Origin: Saccoglossus kowalevskii
Lineage: Eukaryota; Hemichordata; Enteropneusta; Harrimaniidae
Length of the DNA stretch: 64,000 bases
Direction: 5' to 3'
NCBI RefSeq assembly: GCF_000003605.2
Contig: NW_003106602.1
Span: 342,778 to 406,777 of the forward strand
Under the pieces are notes generated by a model. The model ran no database searches and was not told where the DNA came from. It saw only the letters and a program-made list of their open reading frames with translations. Positions 7,642 to 46,176 of this stretch are shown piece by piece (the first letter of the stretch is position 1; each line of letters begins with the position of its first letter). The translations under genes and the position numbers were made by a program.

Positions 7642-10600
7642 ATGAATATTGAACGTGGCAGTTTGGATGACATCACCAGACCTGCTAGTAGTGACAGACC
7701 TAGAACTGGCAGCAGACCTAGCAGTAGAGTATCACTTAGCAGTGTAACATCAACAAGTAGACCACCACAAAGACTAACCACACCAACACTACTAGAATTA
7801 CTGCCACCTGAAGACATTTCACAACAGGTTAGTCTTGTTTTTTGGATAATATTTACTTCACAGACTGTTATTTCATGAGAAATTTTTAAATAACAACTTG
7901 ATTGTTGACCCAGAAAATATGCTAAATTATTTATTTATTATATAACTAGAAAACTAATACTGACTCAATGTTATAAATTTAATGATTTATTGAATAAAAA
8001 AAATAACTGTTGGAATGTTAACAGTGCCATACTCCTAACGGAAAACAAGTTGGCTGTGGTAACCTTTGAACTGTCTAGAAAGTTATTGGATATATACTGG
8101 TACATTTACACGTACTCCTTTTCCAAATACTGTTTCTCGGTTTCTTTGATTTTTTTTTTTGTTGCCATGCCAAATACAAACTCTAGCACATAGACAAATG
8201 TTTGCTGTTTGCCTGATACACATGATGCAAGCGTCAAGCCATAACCAAGTACTTTCTCTGTAAACGAGCTTCTTCTATTCTATTAACACACCACTTGCTG
8301 ATGCAGATGTGGAGGCTTTCAGACCATGATTTGTCAAATTAATGTGATAATTTATTATACTTGTAAAAAATATGAAAAATAGACTGAATAAAACATTTGG
8401 GTACTCTAACCAGTTCAAAGGCTGAATTATATTAAACTTCTTTCTTGTGTGATACTAATAAAATTATTCACCAGAAAAAATGTTGAATTCTATCCAGATA
8501 TTGTTACTCTCATAAAATGTATAGTATACTACATTGTACATCGTTCACTTTTACTGCAATCAAAGTTCACTAAGCGTTGTATTCTGACCTTGTATTCCCC
8601 TTCTAAGTAAAGGAACTTATCCTTGTTTAGTAGCTGTTTTGTAATTTATGCCTGCGTTTATTGCTGTTTTACCTATACATTCCAACTTTGTCATAGTTAC
8701 CAGCAATAAACCGTAATAAATTACTTGGTTTATAGCTATAAGTATGCCAACGACTTGCAATTGTGCATTGTTCACTGGTAGGTGTTAGTCATAACTGGTT
8801 GGGTGTTGTCTGAGACAGGTACGTGGTGTCAGCTCTGATCTTGACTATCAAGGTTTTTCCTTCATTTTCCTATTGTTTGTTCTCATGTTGGTTTGTATGA
8901 TAACATTATATCACAAGTTTTGGTTTTATTGAAGCAAATTTAAAATGCTGGTTTTTATGGACACACACATATTAACTACACCTGTGTGGTGGGCGCCATT
9001 TTCTTTACATTTTTTTCAATCATTTGGAACATATAAAGAGCCTGAAAACTGCCCATTGATTCTATATGTTCAGTTGGTATCACACACAGAGTAGTAATGA
9101 GTGTTTCTAAACATATTTACCCATGGGAAATAATTCAGTACTCATTTTCTGACCTTTTTTAGGAACATGACCTGGAGGTGGTTGAATACCAGAGTTCAGA
9201 TAGTGAAGACGAAGGTGTACAGAGGAAGAGTAGAAACATCACAGACTCTTACAAGCAGTTGTTGTATACAAGTAAGTTTCCTTTGACTTTGACTGGTATC
9301 TTGTGTTCTTTCTTTGTAGTTTGAAATACAAAGTAATAGTTGTTCACTCCCCGGTGTTGAAAGCACAAAGAGATTTTTAAAGTTTATTTGTGTCTCACTT
9401 TGAATACCATTAAACCTGCAAGTTCTCTTAAACTCTAGATGACTTCAACATCGGTGATGAGAATGCACCACCACAATCTGATTCCACTAGAACAAAGCCG
9501 ACATCAGAACAAAGCAAAGAAGAAGATGAAGATGACAGAATACAGGACCCTAAACTGCGGGCTGCCATTAAAAAAATGAAAAAACTTGATAAGATATTAG
9601 CTCAGAAAATCAAGCGAGAAAAAGAAGTGAAAAGGCAAAGAATACGACTGCAGAGACAGCTTCAAGAAGAACTGGAGAGGGCAAAGCCAGAAGGACGAGA
9701 CGAACTGAAAGAGGTGAAAGAGAACACTCTCAGGTTTTTGGCATTAGCTCCGCCTCCCTCGCATAACGAAGGTTAGTTGAAAGGTTTTATTTTTCATTCT
9801 TGGTTCTCTAATGAAACTTGTCATAACATGCGTCATAAACATAAAATATGTTTACAACTGTGGATTCACAAGAAAGCCTAACTTTCATTTTGTTGAGTGT
9901 AATGCTGATTAAGCTGAGTATTTCATTATCACAGTTATCTCATAAAAAAACATTTAATGTACATGTTTTGTATCGGTATATGTTATATCATAGTAAAACA
10001 TGTGTAAATTGTGATGCATGTTGAGTATGATAGGGTCCCAACCTTTTTTTCTTATTGTTAATTAGTAGGATATATAATGGGAATTTCCAGTCTTTTCAAA
10101 AATATAGACTATGTATGAAATACGTCAAATTTGTCAAATATGTTTTGTATCGGTATATGTTATATCATAGTAAAACATGTGTAAATTGTGATGCATGTTG
10201 AGTATGATAGGGTCCCAACCTTTTTTTCTTATTGTTAATTAGTAGGATATATAATGGGAATTTTCAGTCTTTTCAAAAATATAGACTATGTATGAAATAT
10301 GTCAAATTTGTCAAATATGTTTTGTATCGGTATATGTTATATCATAGTAAAACATGTGTAAATTGTGATGCATGTTGAGTATGATAGGGTCCCAACCTTT
10401 TTTTTTCTTATTGTTAATTAGTAGGATATATAATGGGAATTTTCAGTCTTTTCAAAAATATAGACTATGTATGAAATATGTCAAATTTGTCAAATATGTT
10501 TTGTATCGGTATATGTTATATCATAGTAAAACATGTGTAAATTGTGATGCATGTTGAGTATGATAGGGTCCCAACCTTTTTTTCTTATTGTTAAATAGTA

Positions 10601-13073
10601 GGATATATAATGGGAATTTTCAGTCTTTTCAAAAATATAGACTATGTATGAAATATGTCAAATTTCTCCTGAAGTTGTTTGTTAGCTCGATAAAGTCTTC
10701 CATCTTTTGACTCTGCTGTCTCCTGAACTGGCTGCAATCAAAAGAGATAAATTAGTTGTGTATTGTTTTATTTTGCGGATAAAATACTTTAATACCATGT
10801 GGTCTATCACTTTTATTTTACATTTTCCACAGTAACATGTTTCTCTGTGTACCGTAGAAATTAAAAGAAAATCTGTTATGCAATCTATAATGTACTTGTT
10901 CGCTGTTTCATTTTTGCTCATTTTTATTCTATCAAAATTTGGGAAATTCAAGCTTAGCTTTTGCCAGGAGGCTGTATCATATCATTGTAGTTTCACCTAT
11001 ACAAGGGTGGGGGTGCCGGGAACAGTAATTTGACTTTCTCTCTGTGAATTTGAGACAGACAGAAAGTTGATTTACTGCATTTCTGTCACCTCTCTAGTAT
11101 ACTGTGTATTTCATGCATCCATTTCACGTCTTGAACATGCACAAAATTGACATATTCATTTTATACAGAGATGCATATAACTGCTTTTTTTTTAAAAAAA
11201 AAAAGCATCATGGTCATTGCAAATAATTACAGATATCAACATTTATCAAAAACCATTCACAAGCTTTTCATTCTCAAGTACAAAAAATGTATTCATGAAA
11301 ATAGTGATCACACTGAAAAGAAAAAATCATGCTTCCATGCATTGCATCATGTAGCAAACTGCCTGAACAAGCAGTCTGATCTTGAAGTGCTGTCATCAAC
11401 AGTTTATGGGTATGATTTAGGGACAAGGCTTGCATTTTACACATGCTTACCCATAAATAGCAATCTCTACCAACTGTAACCAAGTTTCAGAATTATTTCT
11501 GCAGTCAACGAACAAGTCAGATGCGTGTACAGTTTTAACCAGGATCCACAGAACTCACCAACACCAGGCACGACAAGTTGACCTTTTACCCTTGAACATT
11601 TCATGGTCAGAAAGTCAACTTGCCGTTTGCCTGTTGTGCATGGTACAGTCATCATAAAGGAAGCATTATTTTGTTCCACCATGTTCACAAACAAAGGAAT
11701 ATTGAGCTTGTGGTTATTGGTAATATTGATATGGTGTAATATCTAAGTAACATTTAAATACGTATGTAATCATAAGATGGTGTCTTTTTATAAATACAGG
11801 CAAAAATGATCCACAAAAAAAGTGATCCACAGTGTGAGATTTTATTTTAACAATTATCAATAGCTGGGAAATTTTCAAATTACATCTTTGTATGTGTTAT
11901 ACATAATGTACCAATACACACATATATTTTTGTAATTTGCAATTTTCCTTGCCGTATAAAATAAAATATCATACTGTAACACTATTCAGTCGACTGTCTA
12001 CCAGCACCAGGTCAGGCAATCTTGCCTTTTCTCCGTGATGTGACATGCAGGACAGAAAGTAGGCTTGCCTGTACCTGTTGTATTGGATTACCAATCGCTA
12101 TTCATATTATGTTAAACATGCACATTTGATGTTAATGAGGGTCTAAAGAGAGCAAGAATTGTATTAATGGGATTGGGGTGGGTGTGTCTATCCGCAAGGT
12201 TAACTGCTGAAAGTAATTATTACTGCAGGTCATGATCAGAAATTACACATGTATCATACGTCTCTGTGTTGCTAGTTATTGAAAATATTTTTAATCACCT
12301 TTGCAGACATTAAAAAAAAAAGATAATCAATTTGAGAAAATCTGTAGTTCTATGTGATGATTATGCACTTTCATTGTCTGTATACAGGTATGTTTGATAT
12401 TAGTACTATAAAGGAAACTAACTATATGCATAACTATATATAAACTGTAGGTGTTGGCTTAGATGATGAGTCACCTCCAGTGACTCCAGTATTTGCAACA
12501 CAGCCACATTTAGATGATATGGTGAATGGCAATATTACTGATAGATCCAGAACAACTAATGCATCTGAGGATACCACTACAAGCGCAGGTGAGCTATAAT
12601 TTGAATCTTTCTACTGAATTCTTTTGTCTGTTTAAATCTATTTGTGTTTAGTCTGGCTGATCTACCATGCCTGGTTGTATTGTTTGGTGTCTTCAAATTT
12701 TATCTTAAAATAATTTCCATATTCGATTATGGTTATCAGCTCGGCTGTCTTGATATTATTTGACTGTCCATCTAACCCCAAGAATTGATTTGTAATGCAA
12801 CATATTATCCTAATTTACTGTGTGCCAAATTTTGTGTTTCAACACTCATTTTCTCATTACACAGGGGGTTCCCAGACGTCTAATGCCAGTACAAACAGAG
12901 GAACTGAAACCACCAAGAAATCAGCAGGAAAGAGTGGCAGAGGCAGTAGAAAAAAACCAACAAGTAAAACAGATTCTGGACTGCAAAATAAAGATGATTT
13001 CATACAGCGGAATATTCAGGTAAGATCTTAGATGTAAAGTCATTTTTGATATCTTGCTGTGTGCTTGAGTATT

Positions 13074-13136
<63 letters not shown>

Positions 13137-16100
13137 TTTNNNNNNNNNNNNNNNNNNNNNNNNNNNNNNNNNNNNNNNNNNNNNNNNNNNNNNNNNNNNN
13201 NNNNNNNNNNNNNNNNNNNNNNNNNNNNNNNNNNNNNNNNNNNNNNNNNNNNNNNNNNNNNNNNNNNNNNNNNNNNNNNNNNNNNNNNNNNNNNNNNNNN
13301 NNNNNNNNNNNNNNNNNNNNNNNNNNNNNNNNNNNNNNNNNNNNNNNNNNNNNNNNNNNNNNNNNNNNNNNNNNNNNNNNNNNNNNNNNNNNNNNNNNNN
13401 NNNNNNNNNNNNNNNNNNNNNNNNNNNNNNNNNNNNNNNNNNNNNNNNNNNNNNNNNNNNNNNNNNNNNNNNNNNNNNNNNNNNNNNNNNNNNNNNNNNN
13501 NNNNNNNNNNNNNNNNNNNNNNNNNNNNNNNNNNNNNNNNNNNNNNNNNNNNNNNNNNNNNNNNNNNNNNNNNNNNNNNNNNNNNNNNNNNNNNNNNNNN
13601 NNNNNNNNNNNNNNNNNNNNNGGTAATCACTTTCACATAGGACTGGCAATATTTTTTACTGACAACTCCACAGAGCAATTACACAGACGCAATTACACTG
13701 TAAATATTCTTGTGTTCATTTTTTCAGCTTGCTTCAGATGCTGGCAGTTTAATTGCTATGACCGATGATGAAAAGAAACGACTGGAAGATCTCTTGGCTG
13801 ATGTAGAAATGTTAAAGGAAGATGATGATGATAATGAGGTTAGACTATGTATATATATATTTGCTGTGGTTCACCCATTCATTTTAAGCGACTAGATGCT
13901 TTTAAGAAGATTATACAAACTATTTAATACCTCATTCACAACTTTATTTCCCTCTTCTTCATTGATCTTTTGCCACCCTCCCCTTTAATCCTCTTCTCTT
14001 CCATTACAGAATGCAGATGTGAATCCTTTCCAACTCAAAGTAGCACCAGGGTTTGGATTTCAACCTGATCAAAATGATGCTAAGACTCTACAAGATATTG
14101 ATGCTAGGCTCCAGACATTATTACCAAAAGAAGATTTTGAATCTATTTGTAGCACCCCAGGAAGAACAGAATCCGAATATTCTGAGGTATGATGTACACT
14201 GACACAATTATTACCAAATGTAAGATGCTCACATCTGATGACATGAACTGATCAGAACTCACTTGTGATCTACTGTGACAATGTTGTCCAAATGTACTTG
14301 TTTTATTTATTACCCAAGACACATATCAGTGAACAAATTCAGTTCTATGACTTTGGATATCAATGACTTCTTCTTGCAATCAGTCACTACACACAGAAAA
14401 CCTGAATAAATGTTCTCCTATAAATTGTGCTATAATCTCCAATGATGATTTGAATTCATTGTCAGTTTGATACAGCGCTAACTTTAAAACTGAAGACGAT
14501 GTGCAATACTCAAAATCACATTGCAATTACTTTACAGTATAAGTTCAGTCAACACGAATACCATGGTAACATGGACCTAATGCTGCTCGGTGAGAGGGCA
14601 CTAAAAGAAACTAAAGAGATGAGAGATCAGCAAAGTAGACTCAAAGAAATAGAAGATGAATTAACAAATCTACAACTAAAAGTGGAGAGTGAGGTAAGAT
14701 TTCATTTCTGTATAATACTGCAAATATTTTTATGGTTAAAAAAAACCTGGCAGTAGTGCAACAGGTGTCCACGATACAATAAAAACAAATACATTACCAC
14801 AAGCCTGAGGTAACCTCCCAAATACAGAATTACCATTTATGTCTTTAAAATGTCTTATCCCAATTTTGTTCTATTTGCTTTTTTATGGTAAAATGTTACT
14901 CAATAATAAAAATAATAATAAAATAATTTTTACAGATGTAATAAAAATATAGGGTCACTGTGATGTGCAAAATGTAGTGAAAATAGTATGTTTTTAAGGC
15001 ACGATTGTCTCCTTTGTCATTTTATGCAGTTTTTCTGAGAAAAAAATGATTGATGGGACTAAAACTGATTAATTATAGACAGATTTTGATTTTATATTGT
15101 CATTGCTATATATGCTAAAATATGTGCACATATCAAAAGTCCAATATATGGGATTCCCGTTGATGAGGTCTTATATAGAACAGTACTTCAGATAAACAGA
15201 TGGCATCATCTCAAATATTATATGGACTATGATTTTTCTGGTAAAATGCATTAATGTACAATTAAAACTTTCACTTGCAGTAGAAAAAATAAATGATATA
15301 AAAATACGTAAAAAAAAAATCCTAATACTAAATCTAACATTAATTGTGTAGCCATCTGTCTGTGTACTTTTGGTATAACCCTTCTAAATGTGTCTCATCT
15401 TAATTTCATTCTATAAAGATGGAATTCCCACACCTCAGCAATGTTCAGTTACACGAATTGCTTGAGCAATGTTCAAGAGCCAGTTCACGTGCGACGATAG
15501 AAACAGACGCTATGGCAAATTCACCTCGGTCGCCAGCCCAGAATTCTGTTTCCTCCATCTATGAAAGTCCACCTAAACTAGCTGATGATGTGCTGAGACA
15601 ACTTTTAGAAGATGCTAGGAATGAATTGAAGATTGCCAGATGTAATTCCAGACTCAGTACTGTTAGAGAGGAAGATGGTAGCAGCATGTCACGCGCCTGC
15701 ACTCGAAGTTCCAGCAATAATGATTTTGAAAATGTTAATGAAAGGGGTAAATGATATAGCAATTGTTTTCTTTCTTACACTAGGAGATTGAACTGGAATT
15801 GTTTTAAATTTGTGTACAGACATATGGTCTTGAATGATACCTTGAGTATTATAGTGAAGCAGATTAAAAGAATACAAGTTGCCCAGACCTCAAGCTGCAA
15901 ATAAATACATGTCATATTGTCAGCATTGAAAACATAATCCTTATTTTACATCTCATTTTCTCATTTTCAGACATGCATGTGGAATCAGTTTCGGAGCTAA
16001 CAATCCAAGAGCTGTTACACAATCCCAGAGCTACATCTCGAGCTGCATCAAGTGGCAACCAATCCCCAACACCGGTGTCATCTGAAAATAGTCCACGTTC

Positions 16101-17238
16101 TGCAAATGTGACGGACAACGGAGCTTTTACCGAAAGTGTGGGGGACAGTCAGGGTTCTACTCTATGGTCATCACAGTCTGCGATGTTCACACCGCGGGAC
16201 AAGTTGCCGGGCTTGAGTGGGGATGCTGATGATTGGGATGTGGAAAATGTAAATGATGAAGATGGTGATGATGATGCAACCCCAACACCAGGAGAAATTA
16301 GTTACAAAGCTGGGTCATTGCTACAGGGTAGGAAAAAAGACACTGATGCGAGACAACAAAATACAATGTTTGGATCTGGAAATGGCACTGCAATAAATGA
16401 GAGTGATTCTTTTACGCCTACATTTGGAGATGATATAGCCAGCGTGGATGGGGAAAATGAAGAATCTGCCATTAGAACTGTAGCTATGTTTGCCGATATG
16501 AAGGGCAGGCCACTAAGCCACCTCTCGGTGATGGATGAGAGTGACTTCGTGGAAGATTATGTGGGATCAGATTCAGAGATAGATGATAATTTTGGTCAGG
16601 ATGATGAAAGCTATGATGGAGAACTACGGGAATTACACTCCCCATCTGTTGACTCAAGAGCTAGTTCTCAACTTTCACATCCTCGAACTGAATCGGACAT
16701 GAGTATTAGACAGTTACGAATTTCCAAATCTGCATTTGACTCTCGTCCAAGTTCGAAAGCTGAGAGCAACCGAACTGTTACGCCAATAACCCCAGATCCC
16801 CTTCCAAAACCGCCGTCCAAGGCTTCCAATGTGAAGCACAGTGCAAGAAGTGTGAAGTCTATAAAGAAAGGACTTGCAATGGTTTCTCGATCCGATCCTA
16901 GTGCTACTGAATCCAGAGCTGCCTCGCAGACCTCAACTATAAGATCTGATTCACAGGCATCCACAAACACGTCAGTTTCCTCGTCAGACTTTGAATATGA
17001 ACATGACGATGAAATCCGGGCACACCTCATACTTGATGAAGAACAGCTTGCAGAATCCAGGAGATTGGCACAGGCACAAAGAAGAATGGCCAAATCAGTC
17101 AACAGATCAACCACATCTCCTCCACATCCGCCAAGTAAAGGTCACAACACCAGTAAGCAAAAAATGAGAAGGAAAATGCCAATGATAAGTGCCCCAGATG
17201 TGAAAGAATCAAAAACATTCAGTCCTCCTCTCCTGTGA
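7642..17238 (+). CDS. FSIP1: Fibrous sheath-interacting protein 1 homologue (FSIP1)
   Basis: In mammals FSIP1 binds AKAP4 in the sperm fibrous sheath. Coding exons are 7642-7827 (exon from 7623), 9163-9271, 9439-9771, 12451-12588, 12865-13019, 13728-13838, 14010-14186, 14538-14693, 15419-15746 and 15971-17238. All phases match, giving 2961 nt and 986 residues, longer than the roughly 580 of human FSIP1. A conserved basic coiled coil lies at residues 135-180 (DPKLRAAIKKMKKLDKIL). The second signature, FIQRNIQ joined to LASDAGSLIAMTDDEKKRL, starts near residue 301 and spans the splice across the gap. Another coiled coil occupies residues 420-455. The C-terminal half is acidic, serine-rich and probably disordered, with recurring SRASS/SRPSS motifs. 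The start is the first ATG of the exon. Confidence 0.9.
8309..8400 (+). repeat. Dispersed repeat C, copy 2
   Basis: This is a diverged second copy of the block at 6085-6175. It shares gctttcagac, tgataatttattata and the end tagactgaataaaacattt, with a few small indels. It lies in the intron between the first two FSIP1 coding exons. Confidence 0.65.
9964..10668. repeat. Tandem array, four copies of a 177-bp unit
   Basis: Units start with tgttttgtatcggtatatg at 9964, 10141, 10318 and 10497, so the period is 177-179 bp. The copies differ at only a handful of positions, mainly the length of a T run and a few substitutions. The last copy stops at about 10668. The array lies in the FSIP1 intron 9772-12450 and codes for nothing. 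Near-identity suggests recent amplification or gene conversion. Confidence 0.95.
10669..12450. other. Remainder of FSIP1 intron, no gene seen
   Basis: No exon that joins the FSIP1 frame is visible. Two segments on the minus strand, about 11560-11645 and 12000-12092, resemble each other (caacaccagg/cagcaccagg, gacaagttgacctttt/ggcaatcttgcctttt) and may be old copies of one repeat. Neither gives a recognisable protein. Confidence 0.5.
13074..13621. repeat. (TTTA)n microsatellite running into an assembly gap
   Basis: A tetranucleotide run of tttatttatt type occupies 13074-13139 and is followed by N from 13140 to 13621. The gap sits in the intron between FSIP1 exons ending 13019 and starting 13728, both phase 0. 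Joining them gives an uninterrupted conserved motif, so no exon need be missing. Confidence 0.9.
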
Positions 17239-17610
17239 GGAACATGAATTAAGATTGTTGGAGACATCATCTTATCTGCTCAATAATAACTTGTATGTGA
17301 ATTCTCAAAATAGTATAAAGAAGAAGATTTTGATATTTATGTGTGTTAAGTAAACCAAATACTTGTGTCTGTTTATGTATGAGGAATTCTTAGCAACATG
17401 CAGTAGTTTGTCTGCTCACATAAATGTATATAAGTGTCTCAAATACTTTCTATAAATACTGCCCAAAGGATGTAGTATATTTTTCATTACAGGTTTTTCT
17501 GTGTGTACATATTTTGAACCGTTGTTTTATTTTGTATATAAGTTGTAACGGTTGTTTCCTCTACAGCTCTCATGCAGATTTTGCAATAAAGTAAAACACA
17601 AATTATGATA
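17239..17610 (+). other. FSIP1 3' UTR and poly(A) signal
   Basis: After the stop at 17236-17238 an AT-rich trailer continues to a canonical AATAAA at 17585-17590. A cleavage site about 15-25 nt later would give a 3' UTR of roughly 370 nt. The transcript would then end about 400 bp from the stop codon of the convergent gene at 18002. Confidence 0.7.
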
Positions 17611-18001
17611 ATGTTTCTTATCTGATATTTTTTTGGTATTTTTTCCTGTCTTACAAGATTGATTGTAGTTCACCTTGTTCACATGGCAGGCTAGCTCAGT
17701 AGAAACAAATACATGTAGTGGGGTAACCTGGTGCAGTTGCTGTATGCCACAATACTATCAAAATCTGTGACAGACTTGTTTACATTTAGCTATTCATTAC
17801 AATCAGTTGACTTTAGGAAACAACAAAAGTCTTAGTTGACTAAGTTTCTGATACCTAGCATGTATACAAGGGATTATTAAAGTTATAATAATAAAGACTC
17901 CCACATCCATGATAAAGAGTTCCTAGGCCTAATAGTCTTGCAGGATATTGTTATTCAATGCACCAATGCCAAAGTTCTAACCAGACCAGTAAAATATCCC
18001 T

Positions 18002-21000: not shown

Positions 21001-21109
21001 CATACTTACGCCATTGGTTAAGCTGTGTTTCCTCTCTCGTCGTCAGAACACATTGGCAACTAACACTAAAGACAACGAATACAAAGAAATACGTAGACGA
21101 AAACGCCAT
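18002..21109 (-). CDS. Secreted two-furin-repeat protein, R-spondin-like without TSR
   Basis: Coding exons on the minus strand are 21109-21010, 19745-19661, 19282-19221 and 18183-18002. Phases 1, 2, 1 match and the total is 429 nt, 142 residues. Exon 1 encodes a signal peptide (MAFSSTYFFVFVVFSVSC). Two furin-like repeats follow, with R-spondin cysteine spacing: FU1 has CRRCTHRDGCESC, then GVCLGNCPIGYF; FU2 has CASCKNAYECRRC, then RCVDKCP. R-spondins bind LGR4-6 and ZNRF3/RNF43 to raise Wnt signalling, but the residues I recall as contacts differ: IRQVGVC of human RSPO1 is IWGYGVC here, and the two FU2 phenylalanines are K and E. There is no TSR domain and no basic tail. It may be a divergent R-spondin relative or another FU-repeat protein; the ligand role is unproven. 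Confidence 0.75.
18418..18490 (+). repeat. MITE-like repeat, family 'tttattttcgc', partial copy 3
   Basis: The sequence tactgtaaaatactttattt matches the left end of the 5271-5474 element, followed by gattttcgct and a shortened core. It lies in the last intron of the furin-repeat gene. Confidence 0.6.
19626..19652 (+). repeat. (ATC)n trinucleotide run beside a splice donor
   Basis: The run of atc units begins a few bases into the intron that follows furin-repeat exon 2, whose donor reads gtgagtattg on the minus strand. Confidence 0.8.
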
Positions 21110-27519: not shown

Positions 27520-27793
27520 GTATGTACGACACGTTCAATGAAGTACGTTGACTTTTACAAATCGATAAGACTATTGTAGACGATAAGAACTTTTATTGCG
27601 AAGAGAATACACTGTGATATATTGAATGCGGACTAATTGGACAATAGTTAGTGGTGTTAAGGTGTGCGTCGAAAAGAAAGTGAACCTTGACCTAATTGGC
27701 TCCTGTACCAAACTTACTTTTAACTTATTAATCGTTGTCGTTTTTACAGATTATTTATTCCATCGCAGCTGATATATAAAGAAGACCGGAACT

Positions 27794-30650: not shown

Positions 30651-30957
30651 TTCACTAATCTTTCTTGTTGTCAACGTATGGGATTGTCTGAAGCTCAAAT
30701 GCTCGGTAAATATATGAGAACCAATTTTATCAATGTTATGCTTGTCACTGTTCACGTGACTAGAGCCACCAACTTACTGTATATATATATTGAAGCTGCA
30801 GAGGGCAGTATAGTACTAAAGTTCCGTGTCAGAAATTTGCCGAGAGGGGTATGATGACGGGCTCTAGGGTTCCCAGCTGTTTCTGTAAACCATATTGACA
30901 TACACAACGAGTGTCAAATATATTGGTGCTTAAATCAAGAAAAGGAGTTTATTTTAA

Positions 30958-34600: not shown

Positions 34601-35018
34601 TTACAAAGTTTTGAAGAAGAAAATTTATACAGCTTTAAAATATCTCAGTCCCAAGCTCCGAAAAGTAGGCAAATTATTGCTCTTTCTTCTCACAACGAAA
34701 AATGCAATATATATATATATATAGATGATTTGATTAAAGAAAGTCACGTGATAGAAATGTTTAATAATAAATAAGGATTTTTTTTTTTTACTTTTTCTCT
34801 CTTTTGAATGCTCGGTAAAAATTTAGTAATGTACAAAAATAAATATCTTCCTTGACCAGTTTTCTTTTCAGTTGTGTTTGCTTCTCTGGGCTAAATCTGT
34901 TCGCGCCACCACGATGACGTAACTGGTCAACATTATAATGCTGATATCACTATAGTAGTTGCGTCTACAGAATCTTTGGTGTAATCTTTTTGTGGACGGT
35001 AGTCACGTGGTCTGGTCA
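31611..35018. other. Intergenic or thrombospondin 3' UTR; no coding exon
   Basis: No coding exon is seen. The right-hand part probably holds the last untranslated exon of the minus-strand thrombospondin gene, starting at 35019 and running left. A poly(A) signal could not be fixed (ATTAAA-type candidates exist near 34092 and 34759). A (TA)n run lies at about 34708-34724. Confidence 0.45.
33455..33497 (-). mobile_element. TTAA MITE, solo end fragment
   Basis: After TTAA at 33451-33454, the sequence agggcggcagtcgttgcact and then gcgcatgtgcgacatttgtg is the reverse complement of the right end of the 62686-62931 copy. The remainder was not recognised. Confidence 0.6.
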
Positions 35019-35213
35019 TCTGGGAAAAAAATGAGAGAAATGATCAATAAACGCCACAATAACGTGACCTCGATGTAAGACATGGCGCCCCCTATCGAAG
35101 AGTGGTGTCGTCATTTCGAAAAAAAAAGTCTAAATATTTTGTCATTGCAAGACGCTAATTGGCAGCCAATTACTAACGTGTTCAAAATCACATGATAGCA
35201 TTCGATCTCTTAC
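35019..35213 (-). other. Last intron of thrombospondin, starting at the stop codon
   Basis: The stop TAG (35216-35214) is immediately followed by gtaagag, a good donor. The acceptor ttttttcccag lies just before 35019. If spliced, the stop is the last codon of its exon and the whole 3' UTR is in the next exon. Read-through without splicing would give the same protein. Confidence 0.55.
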
Positions 35214-36181
35214 CTAAGATATACACTTGTATTTCATGTCCGAGAAGAAGACCATTTCCTGGGAGAACACGAAGAGACCAAGACGACCGCCGCCGAACGT
35301 TGTATCAAATATGGCACCAGAGTCAGCCATCACCCGACTACCCTCATACATCACAACTCTGAAAAAAGAAACGAAATTAATAATTAAATAAAGCATTCTC
35401 CGTGGATCGACCAGAAAATAAAGCAGCGTGAATTTCAAGAGCAACAACAAATGAATCCAAATAGAAAGATGTCTGATATAAACAAAGTTTATAATCGGTG
35501 ACTTTACCTCATGTATCCTGTAACCGGTAGATGCGTTAAAGTCCACCTGTAAGCAGTAAAGTCCTTCCAACCAATGGCGTTGGGGTCGCTCCAGAGAAGC
35601 TTCACTTGTCCCGGAGTATCACCTGTATGCCAGAGGGCGTTTCTGAGCCTTTCACCCGGACCAGTGGTGGAGTTTACAAGCTATGAATACAAACAGTACA
35701 TGCACGGTTAGACTTAACGTCCATATGTCGACTCATATTTGACAATCACATGAATAATGATGTTAACACATTCGATGAAATTAACTCATACAGGAAAGTA
35801 TTTCACAGTTATTAAATTCCACGATCCCATTATGCTACAATACGGTAATTGGCGTACTAAATGCGCTCTGGACATTTTCTAGCCCATTAAATTGTTTCCG
35901 CCTGAACGATAAATCTCACTAACGATATCCAATTTCCTATGCCATCTGGCATCTGTACAGCGGATCGTAGCTGTTGAAACTTACCTTAATTTGAAGGCCT
36001 GCGTGACCGATTGCTTCGGTGGGCGTCTGCAGCCAATAGCTTTGATACATTTGCTTCCACATAACGGCGTAGAATTGACTACTTGACTGGAAGCCAAACA
36101 CAAATCCCGCATAGTCGTCGTCGCTATCTGTGTTGATGTAGAAGGTGCCACTGAATTCCACGGCGTCGAAGAAGTCATAAC
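35214..36181 (-). CDS. THBS: Thrombospondin C-terminal L-lectin-like domain (three exons)
   Basis: These exons encode residues from about 983 to 1153, the C-terminal signature of the family. [20 protein letters not shown] and [17 protein letters not shown] match vertebrate thrombospondins very closely. The N-glycosylation site NSTTG is kept. The CD47-associated motif RFYVVM of THBS1 reads QFYAVM here, while the second, RVVM, is kept in YMRVVMYEG. Upstream, in the preceding exon, human NCDPG reads NSDPG, as I recall it does in THBS2. Confidence 0.95.
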
Positions 36182-39100
36182 CTATGTTATTAAAACAAAC
36201 ACGTTTCGTTGGAAATAGCAACTAGTGTAAATCCTGGCAACAACGGCATGCAGTATCATATAGCACGCAGTCCGCGTGAAGCTATGCATATTATGGACTA
36301 GAATTATAATTTGTTGCGGTGTATCTCACGATGAACACCAATTCTTACCGACAGCAAGACCGGGGTCACTATTAGTTGTCTGGATAAGTTCCTTGCCCCT
36401 GTTCCTGACAAGCCAGTTAGGGTCGATCTGGGAGTCTCCCTTAGGGTCAAGCGTGATAGTCTGAAAACTGGTGAAGTCAGTTTGCCGGATCCATCTATGT
36501 TCTGGGCATGCGTCGAATTTATCTTCCACGCCGTCTCCATCGAAGTCGTTATAGCATGCATCACCCACGCCATCGTCTGTAAGAAAAAAAAACATCAATG
36601 GTAAAAAACGTTAATGATAAATTAAGTTAATACAGCTTTGATAATTATGTAACACGTTAAAAAATAATTGTATGTGCTTTAACTCGTAAATAGAACTCAC
36701 CATCGGAATCCAGTTGGTCTTGGTTTGCAACTAATCTGCAATTATCGATCTCGTCAGGGACGCCGTCGTTGTCATCATCGTCATCACACGCATCGCCTGA
36801 AAAGTAAAGCAAAACATGTAAAAACACGTACGATTGAGATTATATTACCATATGTTTCTTACAGCAGTATTAATCGATAATTGCAATTTACTTATATTTA
36901 CCAATGCCATCTTCGTCGGTGTCCAGCTGGCTTGAGTTTGGCTCATCCGGGCAATTGTCGATGTCGTCTTGGTGACCATCTCGGTCCTTATCTAAATTAG
37001 TATCGCATTCATCACCGACCCAGTCATGGTCTTTATCGCCCTACGAAAGAATAAAGTGTTTTTTATTCGTTGGTCGTATATGTGAATAGTACAGATGAAC
37101 GAGAATTATCTATGTGGGAGAAACAAAGAATTAGATTTCCAAACAGCGGTTATCGACCCCCCTCTCTACCCGTAGCATTCACGGTTGTACAGCACGTAAC
37201 TACAGTTGAGAATATTTACCTGTTCACTGTTAGCGACGAATTTGCAATTATCGCACAGATCGCCAACACCATCTCCATCACTGTCCAACTGATCTCTGTT
37301 GTCCACCTTCTGACAGTTATCCCGTTCATTTAGTATACCTACAAAAACACGCAAGATTTAGACATGATACTAATAAACGCTATGGTAACGACGATATTGG
37401 TAAATATTTGTTCCTTTTCAACTCACCGTCGTTGTCAATATCGTCGTCACATTCATCTCCAGCTCCGTCATTATCCGTATCTTTCTGGTAAATGTTAGCG
37501 TCATACGGACAGTTGTCACAGTAGTCACCCACTTCGTCCGCGTCATAGTCCCGCTGGTAGGTGTTGGCAACCATTGGGCAGTTGTCCTGTTGGAAAAAGA
37601 ACAAGTGAAAACCCAAAATTAATTTCAGTATAAATAATAATATAATCAGAATTACTAGTTTAGTGGCAAAAATAAAACCAACTTACCCTGTTGTCCGGTA
37701 TGCCGTCATCGTCGTCGTCATCGTCGCACGCATCTCCGATAAGATCATTGTCCATATCTTCCTGTCCGCTGTTTGGTAAGTATGGACAGTTATCTTTCAC
37801 ACAGTGAGTGGTTTCGTCAATATCGAGGCAGTTGAGAGATTCGTCTGGCCATCCATCCAAGTCACTATCTTCGCCACATTCAAAACCACTTCCAGCATAC
37901 CCAACCTTACACTGAAGATGATAAAAACAATTTACCGTGTTTTTTTTATACCAATCTGACTGCAGAAATAACGTAGTTTGACACTGTAAATGACGTAATA
38001 GAGATAATGCGATATGATTGTTTTCTATGTTCCATACCTTGCAACCATAGGGTGGCTCTGATCTAGGTCCGTAATATATACATTCAGCGTGATTGGCACA
38101 GTTATGAGTACGATCTCTGCAAGGATTGACAGGTTCACATTGCTGTTTGTTTGATGCTGCTTCTTCCACTCCAGAACCCTCGGGCTGGTTTCCACGGTAA
38201 CCAATCGGACACGCCTCGCAGTGGTAGCCGCCATCGTAGTTCCTACACATATGTGCTCCTCCGTATCTGAAACACGCACTCGGCACCAATTTACACTGAA
38301 AAACAACAACAATCGATTACTTAGTGGAATTATCACCAATAAAACTTTAGGTTATTCAGTTTCAGTGAAAACCCCATTCATTGGTTGAAAGTTCTTGTTT
38401 ATCAACTGCGCATGCTCACCTCATTAATATCTTCACACGTTTCCCCGTTGCCGGTATAACCAATTGGACATTTCCCACACGTGTAACTGCCATCGGGAAA
38501 GCTGGTACAATCCACATCTTCGAAACACGGATTTAACAGACAAGCATCTAAAAATAACAAACAAAAGCATTTAATACAAATACAAAATCCGATCAATAAA
38601 TTGATATTGTTTAAAAATTAAATGAGAATGATTTCCCGGGAAAATAACCCGAGTTTGAAAAGAAACCTACCAATGGGACACGGTTGAATGTTGCAATTTC
38701 TGATTTGCGAAGGGCTCCCTGCACAATCACTGCCGCCATATGCTGGAGCTGGACTGTCGCAGCCACGAAGGCGTTCCTTGGTTCCACCATCGCAAGTCAG
38801 GCTACAGCTGCTCCATGGAGACCAGGCACCCCATTCACCATGCACTGTTAAAGTAAACAATTTATAAAATGTCCATGTACATTATATCACGAACTAACAT
38901 TTGTGTTTTGTTGCGGGTAAACTTTTTCGGGGTTTGTTATTACAATGAAAGCGAGTAGCATGGCGTGTTTTTATAAAGTTAATGTGAGTTTATTTTGCAG
39001 ACATTTAGCATTTCCTAAGTTGTTTCCATAGAGATGTTCTTAAGTGGTATCAGTCACGCTAAATGTCTCCGATAGCGTCTACGGACAATAGACTGGCTTG

Positions 39101-42100
39101 CACAGCTTTTTTGACTTCACAGGCGAGACGTCCCGTGGCTTCTATGATTTTCAGGAGAAAAGAAAGAGGACGCCTGGTATCTTAAACTCTCGTAAAATAT
39201 CTCAAACTCTCGCGATGTTTTACCTGGGCATGGATCCCGACTACATGCTCTATTTTCTCTGTTTGGTCCATCACAATCGTCTCCGCCGAGTTGCGGTCGC
39301 GGAGAATTACACATACGTATACGAGTCTCAAGTCCCTCACCGCAGGTTACGGTACATGTCCATGGCGACCATAAGCTCCACCCACCATCAATTCGAACTG
39401 TAGAACAATAATATCCAGACAAATCCATTAAGTTTTTTTTTTGGCAGAAGTATTGAGGCGCCACTCGTGTCAATGGTAAAGTAACATTATATATAAAACA
39501 AATTATAATATATTGTATACCAACCTTTATCGTCACAATCCTTTTCGACGCATACTTTGGTTTCAACGTCACTTCCTTTGCAAGGGTAGTTAATAGTGTC
39601 ACATGACCGTCCTCGCTGCTGCCTCCCGACACCACACGTCACGGAACAAGGCGTCCAATCAGACCAGGCGCTCCAGCCATCAACTTCATCATTCACTGGA
39701 AATGAACAAATAGAAAATATGTCATTATTACGTCACACGATCGAATAAGTAAACATAACTTCGGCATGATGATCCTAACATTTCATTTTATTTGTGAATA
39801 TGTATCACTTACTAGAGCAGACCGGGCAGCATTGGTCTTCTAACACCACTGGCTCTTTACACGTGACTACGGGGCACTCGATAAGGCTGCATGATACTTT
39901 TGAATCCTGTGAAGCAAGAGACAGAAACAAGCGTAAGTCGCGTAAATTAATTGTTAAGTGCGTATGCGTGTTTTTTTCAGCTGTTTGAACGTAATATTCG
40001 GTAAAAACAATATACACTCAATCATACCTTGCAAGAACACTTTTTGCATTTGTTAACGATCCAGTCACTGCCGTTACTATGAAAAATGCTGTCATAGAAA
40101 CAACCTCCGTCTGGGGGTGCACCAATTATTCTTTTCAGTTCCTCGGTTTCAGCCCCCATTCTGTCGACCTCATTGAATATATCTATTAATTCCTTACATG
40201 TATACTGGCAATCATAACGGAAACCATTGTCTACGTTGTTATCTATCGGCGAGGGCGTGGTTGGTACTGTAATAAAGACAACATCTTGATTATGAGTTTT
40301 TTCTAAATGAATGGCGCCCTCACTCGAGGTGTCGCTTGCCGTTTTTGAAGCCGTCGATGGGTGAGAGTTGTTAGGCCAAGTAGCCTGTGTACATTGCCAA
40401 CTACAATCACTGGCTAAGCCTTTGACCAGTTAACAGATTGCCCTTCTATGGTTCACATGGCGGTTCATGATGTAATGAGGAGTGACAACGGGTTTTCCAC
40501 TCGATAATCAGGGTTCAGTGAAGAATATACAAAACACCCCTCGTGAGAAGAATTGGTAATTATTACATCCACCTGGTTTCATTGAGTTTCCCAGACTAAA
40601 TGAAAGAGATCCTTTGTAATGCGATGAATAGTAAAAGAAAAAAAAATCAACTTTCATGTTGGTATTTGGGGCGTAGAATTGTTGCTCTCTTGCCTCGGAT
40701 CGTGAGTAGAATGGTCGTGAAGACAATAAGTGTTAGAAAGACACAACTCAAACATCATGAATGTCAATTGTGAACACATACTCGGTTATTTTGATGGACA
40801 GTGCAACTATAAACTAGCTTTACATGCTTACGTAAAATGTCAGGGGTTTATACTCCCCAAGTACCGTCTATATTGATGGCGTTAATTGAAAAAGCGCGTA
40901 ATCCGCCAGTGTGTCCTTCAGCGGTAAATACGACGTATGAATGACAGGTATACGCGGTGAGAAATCTATCGAGGGCAATGCCACATGTAATCTACATACG
41001 TATACGCGCGTTTTTGAGGCGAGCTATATTCAACTTCGCTAAATCAACAGAGTTGTGCTAGTATGACAGTTACTCGAAGACTTTTTACCCAGGGCTTATC
41101 AAGCCAATTTCCTCTAAATATACAGCCTTAAGCAAGTGAAATGACAGTTGTATGGACTGCCTTTAACCATGACCTTCATTTACAATACTCGTAGATACAA
41201 TGACACATTTGTGATTATAAATCGCAATTGACGCGGTAAACACTCTAAATGGCCATTTGAAAAGCCATGACGCGAGCAACGCCAAAGTGCCCGGAGAACA
41301 TTTCCCACCGAGATTCCATGATTACCGCTAAGAATTTCAAACTTTTTCGAAAGGAATCATTCTACTTCCGGTTTCTAATACGTTACGTACTTATTCACAG
41401 GCCATTTATGGCATATTATATTACGTCATTATCGATAAATTTCGAGAGCACCCAGAGTGTATCGAGGGTTTTCGACCTTTTCTTCGCCACAGTTCATCGA
41501 GTTTCACGCTCATTAGACGATACAGAATTCGTAAATATTTCCGTCATTTTCCACAACCTCTCGTCAAATCGATTTGTTTCCCGGGCGACGGTTAACTTCC
41601 AACCTACTGGAAAGTTTACGCGCTCTAGAATGACGTCACTAGTTCTAAATATAGCGAATTGAGTCTGGGTTAATGGGAGGTTTTCGTGATATTTTGCAAT
41701 ATTTTCAATGTAGTTCATCACAGGAAAGTGTTCGTTTCCATGTCCACCTGTTAATAAATACGAGCGATAAGTATGCTCTGATCGTAATGTGAGAATCTGT
41801 TTGTGGCGAGCAACATTTTATTATATAGAGCAATCAAGTTCCAAATATAGACTTACGCAGAGACGTAGATCGCGATGACTCACCCATTTGTCGTCGAAGT
41901 TATAATATTAGAAGGCAAAAGAAAATAGAACATGAAGTTTTTTTTTCAAGTGGGTAGAGTTACGCCACCAGATAGGCTTAACAACTTCGGCAGTCTAAGC
42001 CAAACGGTGCAGATTTACATCGTTAATAACAACGTCGCACCCTTGCCACTCTTCGTTTTTTTCATAAGACTCAAGTGGCAGAAATTCTTTTTGAGCACTT

Positions 42101-45100
42101 CATAATACTAGTACGACATTTTTTTTCACTCAGCTATGTGGATTAGTTCTGCGCTGGTACTAGCAAGATGTGTGGACGACGAGGCTCTAGAAACGCGGTA
42201 CTAAGAAATCGTCCGCGAAAACGGTGTTTTTTGTGTAAAAAATATATAAAGAAAATGCGATAAGATGTAGTTAATTCGGGAACATGTAAAATATGCACGA
42301 CGATTACGCCGTCAGCTAATCAACGAAAAATAACTGAATATTTTACATAACGTACGAGTCATCGTTGCTCGGTGTTGCAATATTACCGCGCAGGGACGTG
42401 GGAAATTAGCGGATATTCAAGAGGGACAGCGGGAACAATAGGGTAGCTGGTTGCCATCAACTACGGCGTAAGCGAGGTCACGTGTGTGGCTATTAACTTG
42501 CTTCCAGTTATTTTTTTTTTAATTTGGCGTTCAATCGGAAAATTAAGCAACAAACAGAATCTTTCAAACAGCGATAGACAGAAAAATGAGCCGGACAGGA
42601 AAGAAAGCCTGGCCGAGAGTTTCCGGTCCCTGGCTCCGCATGGATGATCAGCTCTACATAGGAATGTTGTTTTTTACATAATTATTGGCATGTGCTCAGC
42701 TACTGGTTAATCGCATAGCACTAGTGGTGAAGAAATGGCCATCGGCGATTTCAACTTCGAATGCTACGTTTTCTCTCATCGCTGAATACACACGATAGTG
42801 CCGTTAGCAATCAGTTCGAGTAAACAGAAAATATAATTATTGTAAATAATTTATGTATGTTGCAATTTCCGTCATTCATTTACGGCGTGATTCAATAGTC
42901 TACCTTCAATCGGCATTCTTTTCGATGGGCAAAACATAATTCACCAAATGTGGTCACGTGATTGTCGGGATTGCCAAACAGATAAAAGAAATCGACGGAT
43001 CATAACAGTATTCTTTTTGTGTGTTGATATTTTTTACACAAATCGTTGACAGTAAATCTATTACGTTTCGGTGACCCTATCCTGTTTTGTTGAAGCTAAA
43101 AAACAATGTCAACTGGGTCTGGAACGTGAAGACAAGCCGCCACACTGGCTCTAATTACCACCCGGGGCACTGTTTTTTCCCGGTCATAGGAAAAGTGGAA
43201 TGCGTTGCCAAACTGTTTATTCGCCAATAATAATCACGGCTGATGGGCTTCAGAGTAAGCATGCTAACCTTTTTACACAGCTCGATGTATATTCCGTTCT
43301 ACTTATTGGTACAAGCCGTACTGGGAGATATACCAAAGCCCGCAAAGTCGACTTCCAACCAAGAGCTCTGATAGAGCCTGTCCATTGTTCTTTGACAAAG
43401 TATCGGGTGACCAACACCGTGTTAGACTTCAAAATATTGGCAACGGTTCATTAAAACTCTGCCGTATAGGTTAGTATAATGCATCATTTGAGTAATTAAT
43501 GTATGAGCACTGTGGTTGTTTTTACCCCAAGTGTAACTTATCTTTTATTTTCATTTTGGCGCCAGGCGTTTTTTACCAACCAATACGTTAGATCTTGATT
43601 TTATCATTTGCGTTTTTATCGATTTTATGAAATTCTTACCTCCGTAAGCCCCACATAACAATTCATCCATATTGTCCTTTGTACTGTGTCGATGCACGTT
43701 GGTTAGTTTATGCTCAATTTGGTCTGTATGCGCTTTTTCTTAAATCAAAGGGCAGAAATTGCTAATCTTTACATCGGAAATATGTCGCTATCGGCGTGTG
43801 TACTTAACAGTTGTCAGCCTGAAATGTATATTTAATAAACCGGTATTTTTCAAACGTTGCCCTGTACACGGTGTTGTCAAATCCACCTTTATAAGTGAGG
43901 AGTAAAACACCACTCTCCGGTATTATACAGGTAACAATATTACGGTCACGGGGGTGTGCAGCGGAGCGATCCAAACGTAAACAAAACCCGATCCAGTAGT
44001 TTCTTGGCAAATGAGTGTATAAAAACGAATTATTATTGTACATTTTAAGTGTAGTAATTTGTTAATTGTCCGCTAATCACGTTACAGCCCATCCATCAAT
44101 CTCAAGAACACGGTTTCTAGTTCAGGCCAATAGCGGTGAAAAGACACGCTCCTGGTTGACCGGTAAATACGGGTGTCGCGATCTCTTCACCCCTTTATCA
44201 AAGGACTAATTGCCACCCATTTTAAAATCTAAAGTGTTAAATCGTATCATTTATCAAGTTGAGTTATACCGCCTATCGTATTTATTTTCATATCGGGTGC
44301 CAAACAAAATATATGATTCCTGTACTATACAATTACGCAACTAAATAACGGAATGCATCATCTCAATTTTCTGGTGCACGCCCGCTCTCTTTGATCTTTT
44401 ATCCAAGTCCTTTAAAGTAGGCCCAACTGTTTTCCGTCTTAAAAAGTTGGAAATTTATCCGTTTCATTGGCCTGCAGTGTGCCGCCCGACCGCACTAGAT
44501 CTGCCTATGATAGGCACTGCTACACTCTGAAGTATGCCTATAATGTCGCCCTACTTGGACATTTTCTCCTGATACGTGAAAGGCCCCGGAGACTCTCGGC
44601 AAAAAGAATGATTGGCTTCATGTCAAATTCGAACACGTTTTCACATGTTTTGATTTTGTGAAACAAAGGAGCACAATTCTTATATCTGCTGAGTGGATAC
44701 TTACCGAATGGTCTGAGCTCTTCTGGGCAACCTTGTTCTGCGAGATAAGTTTCGTACGAGGCTTCAGTGATGAACTTAATGTTTTGGAGAAGTCCCTAAA
44801 ACACGAGAACATTTTTTTACATTATACCGATGTATACTTTACGCAGAACAAAATAGAGAGAATACTATCTTCGAATGATCATGTAATTATCAGGTAGAAA
44901 TATCACGTGGGAAAATCATCCTTATGTGGAAATGAGATATCGATATCAAGTTCGCTGTGATAATTTGAGAGTTGGAGAGTTTTAATTGAACCCAATCACC
45001 CGAGGGCTTACAATATCCCAACGACAAACACTGTGGTTTACCTTGAAATTTCTGACAATGGCAGTGTCTTGCGCCCCCTGGACGATCTGCAGCGAGTAGC

Positions 45101-46176
45101 CCTCTGATTGCATATCCATGTAGAACGGTGTGTGCAGGGTAAGAAGTCCCACTCTCTGGCAATCCACATGTAACACGGCAACGGAGTCAGCTACCACGAG
45201 AGTCATGTTGTGCCACTGCCCATCGGCTAAAGTAACGCCGTTAAAAGTGCCCAGCATCTCAATCGGTGTATTAGTATGGTCTTGCATCGTGTAAAACAAG
45301 TCGACTGAGTTGGTCTTAGTGTTGCTGTGAAGACCGAACTGCCGCCTGTTGCCAACTTTAGAGTCAATCGAGACTAGACTACCTCGGTTGCCCCGGTCTT
45401 GCTTAAGAGATGTGGTAAACACAAAACCAGCATCGGTCCGCATTGATTCAAGAAGTTCTTTTAGAACACTATCTGGTGCTGTCAGGCTCACGGGTGATTT
45501 CAATCTAAATTTCAATGCTAAGGCATTTGGATCTGGCCCGGCTACCTTTCTCACTCCTTCTGTATTTTCATCCACGCCCACCGCATCAAATAAGTCGATT
45601 TCTGTAAATGTGAGAAAAACAAATACATTACAGAAAGGACTCAGGACATGGAAATCGATACATATAATCAAACAATATACATACTGAATGCAAACTGCGA
45701 TTCAGGGAGTTTAAAACGAGTAACTCTTGGACGAGGTCCACTACAATACTGTTTATCAGGTGAAGACATTAGCTTTCAAAATAAAGCATTGTCTGGATAG
45801 GTCACTTGCTGCCAAATTCATAGTTTTGTTGACCCATGCTTTGTTTACCGCCACAGGTGAAGGGAAGAAAATATCTGTCCTTTAAATGATTCAAATTTCA
45901 ATGTGAACGGAATGCTAAAACTGACTTCGTTCCCACTATCAGAAGTCTCACTGTGGATAGCTGCAGCTAAAGACCGTTAAGAAGTGAGAGCACGCACATC
46001 GCGATTCAAATGATAACATGTTACAAACAACAAGATTGAGATAATCGGCGCAAAAAACAAAACAAAAACTTGATAGTTTGCTCACCTTCTGAAAGGCACG
46101 CTGCGACAAGGAATGTAACGAATATAAGTAAAGGCGATGACAAATGCCGCGTAGACGATGATAATATCGCCACCAT
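35214..46176 (-). CDS. THBS: Thrombospondin, group A (THBS1/THBS2 type)
   Basis: This is a secreted multimeric calcium-binding matrix glycoprotein acting in cell-matrix signalling. Coding exons on the minus strand are 46176-46086, 45601-45042, 44795-44705, 40266-40028, 39906-39813, 39695-39525, 39397-39224, 38844-38671, 38547-38420, 38295-38038, 37911-37687, 37586-37427, 37338-37220, 37040-36902, 36796-36701, 36576-36349, 36181-35985, 35680-35508 and 35358-35214. Every phase matches; 3462 nt give 1153 residues against about 1170 in human THBS1. Domain order: signal peptide, laminin-G-like N-terminus, coiled coil, VWC, three TSRs, three EGF-like repeats, calcium-binding type 3 repeats, L-lectin-like C-terminus. 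VWC plus TSRs defines group A; groups B lack them. The start follows a spliced leader and encodes a good signal peptide. Confidence 0.97.
36349..37911 (-). CDS. THBS: Thrombospondin type 3 calcium-binding repeats (six exons)
   Basis: Exons 37911-37687, 37586-37427, 37338-37220, 37040-36902, 36796-36701 and 36576-36349 encode serial aspartate-rich DxDxDGxGDxCDNC-type calcium loops with paired cysteines (for example [20 protein letters not shown]). The first exon also completes the last EGF-like repeat. The RGD of vertebrate THBS1 (GRGDAC) is GVGDAC at the aligned place, and I see no other RGD in this region. Confidence 0.95.
38038..38547 (-). CDS. THBS: Thrombospondin EGF-like repeats (two exons)
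   Basis: Exon 38547-38420 encodes the first EGF-like repeat, ending ETCEDINE. Exon 38295-38038 encodes the second and the start of the third, whose end ([20 protein letters not shown]) is in the next exon. The insert [16 protein letters not shown] matches the group A pattern (human GQGVEHATANKQVC). Confidence 0.9.
38671..39695 (-). CDS. THBS: Three thrombospondin type 1 repeats, one exon each
   Basis: Exons 39695-39525, 39397-39224 and 38844-38671 are 171, 174 and 174 nt, each bounded by phase 1 introns. TSR1 has [15 protein letters not shown], identical to the CSVTCG motif linked to CD36 binding. TSR2 has [18 protein letters not shown] and TSR3 [17 protein letters not shown]. Tryptophan C-mannosylation (WxxW) and O-fucosylation (CxxTC) sites are present. 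The TGF-beta-activating KRFK before human TSR2 is replaced by KVRIDGGW. Confidence 0.95.
39813..40266 (-). CDS. THBS: Thrombospondin coiled coil and VWC domain (two exons)
   Basis: Exon 40266-40028 starts with a short linker, then [19 protein letters not shown], a heptad segment preceded by a CxxxC pair suited to interchain disulfides; group A members form trimers. It then opens the VWC domain ([23 protein letters not shown]), which exon 39906-39813 completes ([14 protein letters not shown]). Confidence 0.93.
40267..44704. other. Large thrombospondin intron, no exon recognised
   Basis: This 4.4 kb intron separates the end of the N-terminal domain from the coiled-coil exon; the phase 1 junction joins directly. 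Several chance frames occur (for example plus 41267-41662) but none resembles a protein. No clear repeat was recognised. Confidence 0.55.
44705..46176 (-). CDS. THBS: Thrombospondin signal peptide and laminin-G-like N-terminal domain
   Basis: Exon 46176-46086 encodes the signal peptide (hydrophobic [12 protein letters not shown]). Exons 45601-45042 and 44795-44705 encode the N-terminal domain, residues about 31-247, with [26 protein letters not shown], then GLLQNIKFI and GCPEE at its end. The domain binds heparin in vertebrates. Basic residues occur ([13 protein letters not shown]), but whether a heparin site is present cannot be told. Confidence 0.93.

What the first reader, a model, noticed from the sequence alone, without database searches (positions are those of the whole stretch)
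7642..46176. FSIP1 and group A thrombospondin are linked and convergent, as in human
FSIP1 reads right and thrombospondin reads left, 18 kb apart. In human, THBS1 and FSIP1 are direct convergent neighbours on chromosome 15, to my knowledge. Two small genes lie between them here. This suggests a pairing older than vertebrates, which would be unusual for genes with unrelated roles and could reflect a shared regulatory block.
Basis: partly seen in the sequence, partly recalled or inferred. Interest (0 to 1): 0.75.

Follow-up and report, generated by a model that had tools for sequence, protein, structure and literature searches.

The report
Old FSIP1–thrombospondin neighbours in acorn worm
In an acorn worm the gene FSIP1 and a thrombospondin gene sit tail to tail about 18 kb apart, much as THBS1 and FSIP1 lie close together in humans, which most likely reflects old gene order kept by inheritance, with no sign yet that the pairing does anything.

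Summary
FSIP1 (+, 7642-17238; ten exons, one open frame of 986 residues) and a subgroup A thrombospondin (-, 46176-35214; VWC, three TSRs, TSP3, TSP_C) face tail to tail, 17,975 bases between coding ends, with no assembly gap between them. FSIP1 matches nowhere else in this genome; the thrombospondin groups with human TSP-1/TSP-2 against COMP. The mitochondrial code and inverted COX1 match Saccoglossus kowalevskii, so this is a hemichordate. Of the 'two small genes', I find one plausible membrane-protein gene and one retrotransposon-like (DUF1759) remnant. Printed human data put THBS1 near FSIP1 at 15q14; the convergent orientation is recalled. The simplest reading is linkage at least as old as the hemichordate-vertebrate ancestor, kept by descent. 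It rests on two lineages; no other animal genome could be searched. Nothing found supports a shared regulatory block: FSIP1 introns are short, the interval holds repeats and transposon debris, and the gene-poor stretch lies on the other side of the thrombospondin gene.

The parts
7642..17238 (+). FSIP1 gene, ten coding exons (7642-7827, 9163-9271, 9439-9771, 12451-12588, 12865-13019, 13728-13838, 14010-14186, 14538-14693, 15419-15746, 15971-17238); predicted, no transcript data
   Evidence: Pfam PF15554 E 7.8e-63 over 2-395/396 for exons 1-9; splice sites with matching phase; one open frame of 986 residues; 2 of 2 genome matches in this gene
35214..46176 (-). Subgroup A thrombospondin gene (related to both THBS1 and THBS2)
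   Evidence: TSP_C, 3 TSP_1, VWC, TSP_3; 71.3% identical to human TSP-1 over 244 C-terminal residues, split with TSP-1/TSP-2 at ultrafast bootstrap 100
17239..35213 (.). Interval between the two coding ends, 17,975 bases, no N
   Evidence: only N run is 13140-13621
22881..23666 (+). DUF1759 open frame, retrotransposon remnant (BEL/Pao type recalled)
   Evidence: Pfam PF03564 E 1.5e-35
25088..26328 (.). 36-base minisatellite, about 35 copies
29278..29955 (+). Plausible small single-pass membrane protein gene, three 3' exons (29278-29358, 29596-29722, 29868-29955); 5' exon not found
   Evidence: exons join into one open frame ending in a stop (sites read); best Pfam E 0.017, all below cut-off
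691..1483 (-). RIOX1/NO66 exons, neighbour of FSIP1 and divergent from it; further 5' exons probably to about 3713 (by eye)
   Evidence: hand-joined 87-aa stretch matches NO66, best E 2.7e-23, against 3.1e-8 for MINA; ORFs; no Pfam hit
13140..13621 (.). Assembly gap or withheld stretch (482 N) inside FSIP1 intron 5

Best explanation
The pair is inherited gene order. A single TSP-A gene and FSIP1 were close neighbours, tail to tail, in the common ancestor of hemichordates and vertebrates, probably on a linkage group that also held RIOX1, PPP2R5 and atlastin genes. Hemichordates have kept the closeness. In vertebrates genome duplication made THBS1 and THBS2; FSIP1 stayed beside THBS1 and any copy beside THBS2 was lost. 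The most likely reason the pair persists is slow local rearrangement, with little or no selection for the pairing itself. Shown: anatomy, orientation, subgroup, copy number, the neighbours on this contig. From print: THBS1 and FSIP1 close together at human 15q14. Inferred: homology of the arrangement, its age and the neutral retention.
For: Both genes convergent on gap-free sequence. FSIP1 matches at one locus only. TSP is subgroup A by domains and by tree. Hemichordate origin: COX1 inverted relative to ND1 and COX2; ATA at conserved Ile sites and AAA at Lys sites (by eye), no AGG, a tRNA with anticodon TTT, as printed for S. kowalevskii. Human closeness. Same contig carries RIOX1, a B56 subunit nearest the gamma and delta isoforms and an atlastin; their human relatives include ATL1, PPP2R5C and RIOX1 on chromosome 14 (recalled), and chicken chromosome 5 is syntenic with parts of human 11, 14 and 15 (PMC521070, passages). 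Bilaterian microsyntenies are largely retained among ambulacrarians (PMC8851819).
Against: Only two lineages are compared. The same paper reports that the vertebrate ancestor inherited fewer blocks (70) than shuffled genomes give (110, 120, 124), so loosely defined conserved neighbourhoods involving vertebrates can be chance. Other vertebrate TSP-1 neighbours were not found beside it: RYR matches lie on C1938 and C663, not C135; SRP14, HGTP_anticodon2 (for EIF2AK4) and Dapper searches gave no match anywhere, with silent controls, so they say nothing. PMC521070 does not mention THBS1 in its main text, so the chicken link is indirect. Atlastin and PPP2R5 also have human relatives on other chromosomes (recalled), so the chromosome 14 link is loose. 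FSIP1 and TSP are 18 kb apart with at least one possible gene between.
Confidence: 0.75

Rival explanations
1. The pair is held together by a regulatory constraint: thrombospondin control elements lie in or beyond FSIP1, making FSIP1 a bystander in a genomic regulatory block.
For: Proposed mechanism for other old pairs such as wnt7-atxn10 (PMC8851819, passage). Human FSIP1 is in LD with THBS1, which shows closeness only. Human FSIP1 is very large (recalled).
Against: Here FSIP1 is compact: ten exons in 9.6 kb, longest intron 2,679 bases. The interval holds a retrotransposon remnant, a minisatellite and a possible gene. The gene-poor stretch lies upstream of the thrombospondin gene, away from FSIP1: no ORF scored 11 or more there up to the contig end, 42.4 kb on; that threshold also misses some true short exons. 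No expression, chromatin or conserved non-coding data could be tested.
Confidence: 0.12
2. Chance: the genes became neighbours separately in the two lineages, helped by both staying on one ancestral chromosome.
For: With genes shuffled inside 24 linkage groups, 19.8 neighbour pairs of any orientation and 1.1 convergent-in-both pairs arise genome-wide by chance; without linkage groups 1.1 and 0.0 (20 replicates, assumed gene numbers).
Against: The expected chance number is small beside the number of old blocks reported (256 new in the bilaterian ancestor against 45-56 in shuffled genomes), though those are blocks of three or more genes and not pairs.
Confidence: 0.1
3. The linkage is an assembly artefact.
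For: Composition shifts inside FSIP1, GC 0.26-0.35 left of 14 kb and 0.34-0.42 right of it, near the N run at 13140-13621.
Against: The N run lies in an FSIP1 intron with FSIP1 exons in correct order and phase on both sides, and there is no N between FSIP1 and TSP.
Confidence: 0.03

Closest known systems
Human THBS1-FSIP1 locus, 15q14
   Same: Subgroup A thrombospondin gene close to FSIP1 (PMC2896935, passages); adjacent and convergent in human as recalled
   Different: Here 18 kb apart with a transposon remnant and a possible small gene. FSIP1's other neighbour here is RIOX1 on the opposite strand; GPR176, analysed with FSIP1 in human, was not sought here.
Conserved vertebrate TSP-1 and TSP-2 neighbourhoods (McKenzie et al. 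2006, PMC1464143; outline and passages)
   Same: Synteny used to trace thrombospondin loci
   Different: Of its named TSP-1 neighbours (RYR3, CHRM5, EIF2AK4, SRP14, GPR) I tested three; RYR lies on other contigs and two gave no answer. The word FSIP1 does not occur in it; the species compared in the passages are tetrapods and fish.
Ancient animal microsyntenies such as the Wnt5-7/atxn10 block (PMC8851819: passages, and part 1 of 2 of section 5) and the pharyngeal cluster (PMC11175523: passages)
   Same: Unrelated genes kept close since early bilaterians or deuterostomes
   Different: Those are seen in many species; this is two lineages and one pair, without functional evidence.

Membership tests
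Subgroup A thrombospondin | VWC domain and three TSRs between N-terminal domain and EGF repeats, then TSP3 repeats and L-lectin C-terminal domain | tested here: met
   VWC E 1.8e-10, TSP_1 three stretches, TSP_3 seven stretches, TSP_C E 2.3e-89; EGF and laminin G matches below cut-off; definition in PMC10381214 (passage)
Subgroup A thrombospondin | Two cysteines before, not after, the coiled coil | tested here: inconclusive
   A DCQYTC motif precedes the [23 protein letters not shown] stretch, the order McKenzie describes for subgroup A, but no coiled-coil prediction was run
Subgroup A thrombospondin | Phylogenetic grouping with TSP-1/TSP-2 | tested here: met
   five-sequence unrooted tree, split of window, TSP-1 and TSP-2 from COMP and C354 at ultrafast bootstrap 100; identity 71.3/67.2/59.8% to TSP-1/TSP-2/COMP
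FSIP1 family | Match to Pfam FSIP1 above the curated cut-off across the profile | tested here: met
   213.4 bits against cut-off 27, positions 2-395 of 396
Ancient conserved microsynteny | Same gene pair near each other in several distant lineages, more often than in shuffled genomes | tested here: inconclusive
   Two lineages only (this genome; human). Null simulation.
Genomic regulatory block | Regulatory elements of one gene inside or beyond its neighbour | not testable with these tools
   No chromatin, expression or other animal genomes held; anatomy gives no support

The most novel reading that the evidence does not exclude
FSIP1 and the ancestral subgroup A thrombospondin gene were a fixed convergent pair from the start of deuterostomes and have been kept by selection, because thrombospondin control or a chromatin boundary depends on the FSIP1 side; the vertebrate THBS1-FSIP1 locus would then be a regulatory unit as old as the deuterostome ancestor.
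Probability: 0.1. Interest if true: 0.6.

Novelty: new member of a known kind. Interest (0 to 1): 0.33.

Why it matters
It offers a candidate landmark for the ancestral thrombospondin locus before the vertebrate genome duplications. [quoted passage not shown] It would matter more if broad sampling showed the pair intact in most deuterostomes. I found no paper naming both genes with synteny: of 31 papers holding two or more of FSIP1, THBS1 and synteny (20 listed, those with more terms first), none is listed with all three.

Tried and rejected
Assembly join: rejected, the only N run is inside an FSIP1 intron. Subgroup B thrombospondin: rejected by domains and tree. Echinoderm, chordate or protostome origin: rejected on the mitochondrial code (ATA at Ile sites, AAA at Lys sites, by eye) and the inverted COX1; the species name is inferred, not looked up.

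Vertebrate TSP-1 and TSP-2 neighbours in this genome: RYR family matches on C1938 and C663; SRP14, HGTP_anticodon2 for EIF2AK4 and Dapper for DACT gave no match and their controls were silent, so these are uninformative. Searches for PF05210, PF10591, PF16597 and PF08007 (Sprouty, SPARC-type, SMOC-type and JmjC_2 domains, names recalled) did not complete. GPR176 and CHRM5 were not sought. Bases 1-252000 of contig C135 were not read. Pfam did not find RIOX1; comparison with solved structures did. Three ORFs left of FSIP1 and one at 18227-18448 tested gave no Pfam match. The other two thrombospondin loci were only partly read; C3806 was not placed in the tree. In one search one exon of the small gene was given in the wrong frame; the joined protein was tested.

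The codon-score scan for genes was trained on the FSIP1 and TSP exons of this window, so it can miss genes of other composition, and its cut-off misses some short exons of those two genes; 'gene-poor' upstream of TSP is by that scan only.

Full report
What is there. The window is G000:C135:342778-406777 of a 572 Mb genome in 4,830 contigs. On the + strand, ten exons with matching splice phases translate as one open frame of 986 residues. A draft of exons 1-9 matches the Pfam FSIP1 profile from position 2 to 395 of 396 with E 7.8e-63. A family search of the whole genome, exon by exon, finds 2 matches, both in this gene. On the - strand a thrombospondin gene runs from a start codon at 46176 to a stop codon ending at 35214. 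Its hand-joined protein carries a VWC domain, three TSRs, TSP3 repeats and the C-terminal domain. The 9 TSP_C matches in the genome fall at three loci: this one, C354 and C3806.

Which thrombospondin. The last type 3 repeat plus C-terminal domain is 71.3% identical to human TSP-1, 67.2% to TSP-2 and 59.8% to COMP over 244 residues (human rows). In a five-sequence unrooted tree it falls with TSP-1 and TSP-2 against COMP and the C354 gene, ultrafast bootstrap 100. Of 18 columns where the human A pair differs from COMP and C354 together, the window has the A state in 9, the B state in 2 and another residue in 7. VWC and TSRs mark subgroup A (PMC10381214, passages); that review reports a THBS1/2 gene in echinoderms and draws a tree that includes S. 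kowalevskii, so the gene itself is probably not new.

Which animal. The mitochondrial contig C4830 (17,037 bases) has COX1 on the strand opposite to ND1 and COX2. ATA codons sit mostly where other animals have isoleucine and AAA at conserved lysines (judged by eye against recalled sequences), one of two AGA codons in ND1 is at a serine site, AGG is absent from 3 of 3 genes read, TGA is read through in COX1, and a tRNA with anticodon TTT is present. PMC2697986 and PMC3121625 (passages) give this code and an inversion of COX1 for Saccoglossus kowalevskii, and different assignments for echinoderms, Balanoglossus, Rhabdopleura and chordates. I infer S. kowalevskii or a close relative.

Is the linkage real. 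There is one N run in the window, 482 bases at 13140-13621, inside FSIP1 intron 5. GC content changes in the same part of FSIP1, but FSIP1 exons continue in order and phase across it. No N lies between the genes.

What lies between and around. The interval of 17,975 bases holds a DUF1759 frame, a 36-base minisatellite and three exons that join into the end of a small single-pass membrane protein without a Pfam match over cut-off. To the left, on the - strand, is RIOX1/NO66 (best E 2.7e-23, against 3.1e-8 for MINA). Further left on the contig are B56/PPP2R5 exons, nearest gamma, E 8e-83, then delta, 4.2e-80, an SDR-like exon below cut-off and an atlastin. Three stretches of the left flank read N, including the 14.4 kb next to the window; whether these are gaps or withheld I cannot tell. 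To the right of the thrombospondin gene no ORF scored 11 or more to the contig end, 42.4 kb on.

Comparison with human. PMC2896935 (passages) maps FSIP1 to 15q14 and describes LD of FSIP1 with the nearby THBS1, with SNPs of THBS1, FSIP1 and GPR176 analysed together. That the two genes are direct neighbours facing each other in human is recalled. RIOX1, PPP2R5C and ATL1 on human chromosome 14 are recalled too; PMC521070 (passages) states that chicken chromosome 5 is syntenic with parts of human 11, 14 and 15, which makes one ancestral linkage group plausible, but it does not mention THBS1. Against this, RYR, a vertebrate TSP-1 neighbour (PMC1464143), matches on C1938 and C663, not on this contig, and three other neighbour searches were uninformative.

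Chance. In a simulation with assumed gene numbers and genes shuffled within 24 linkage groups, 1.1 pairs genome-wide are convergent neighbours in one genome and convergent within two intervening genes in the other (20 replicates). Old microsyntenic blocks are numerous (256 new in the bilaterian ancestor) and largely retained among ambulacrarians, yet vertebrates lost 84% of them, and the vertebrate ancestor's inherited count does not exceed shuffled genomes (PMC8851819, section 5 part 1). So ancestry is favoured for this pair, not proven.

How it most likely works. The pair is probably a relic of ancestral order. A regulatory block is possible but nothing here points to it: FSIP1 is compact (longest intron 2,679 bases), the interval holds a minisatellite and a transposon remnant, and the gene-poor stretch is on the far side of the thrombospondin gene. 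The decisive test, gene order across many deuterostomes, could not be run because no other animal genomes are held.

Noticed in passing
window 691-3713 (-): RIOX1/NO66 gene, divergent neighbour of FSIP1, cut off at left by unreadable sequence; multi-exon here, whereas the mammalian gene is intronless (recalled).
   Followed up: partly
window 46177-64000 and L019-L021: About 42 kb upstream of the thrombospondin gene without any ORF over the coding threshold, to the contig end; a large gene-poor stretch upstream of human THBS1 is recalled.
   Followed up: partly
window 9963-10665: Four tandem copies of a 177-base unit inside FSIP1 intron 3 (98% matches).
   Followed up: no
window 29278-29955 (+): Small single-pass membrane protein gene with a cysteine cluster after the membrane segment; no Pfam match over cut-off.
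   Followed up: partly
window 1-14000 versus 14000-64000: GC content rises from 0.26-0.35 to 0.34-0.42 within the FSIP1 gene.
   Followed up: partly
L024 (C354) and L025 (C3806): Two further thrombospondin loci: C354 groups with COMP (subgroup B); C3806 looks divergent, with a cysteine-rich stretch upstream of its EGF repeats that matches a TNFR-like family only weakly (E 0.05).
   Followed up: partly
L014-L016 (C135:272-302 kb): Atlastin and PPP2R5 (B56, nearest gamma) genes on the same contig, with human relatives on chromosomes 14 and 11 among others (recalled).
   Followed up: partly
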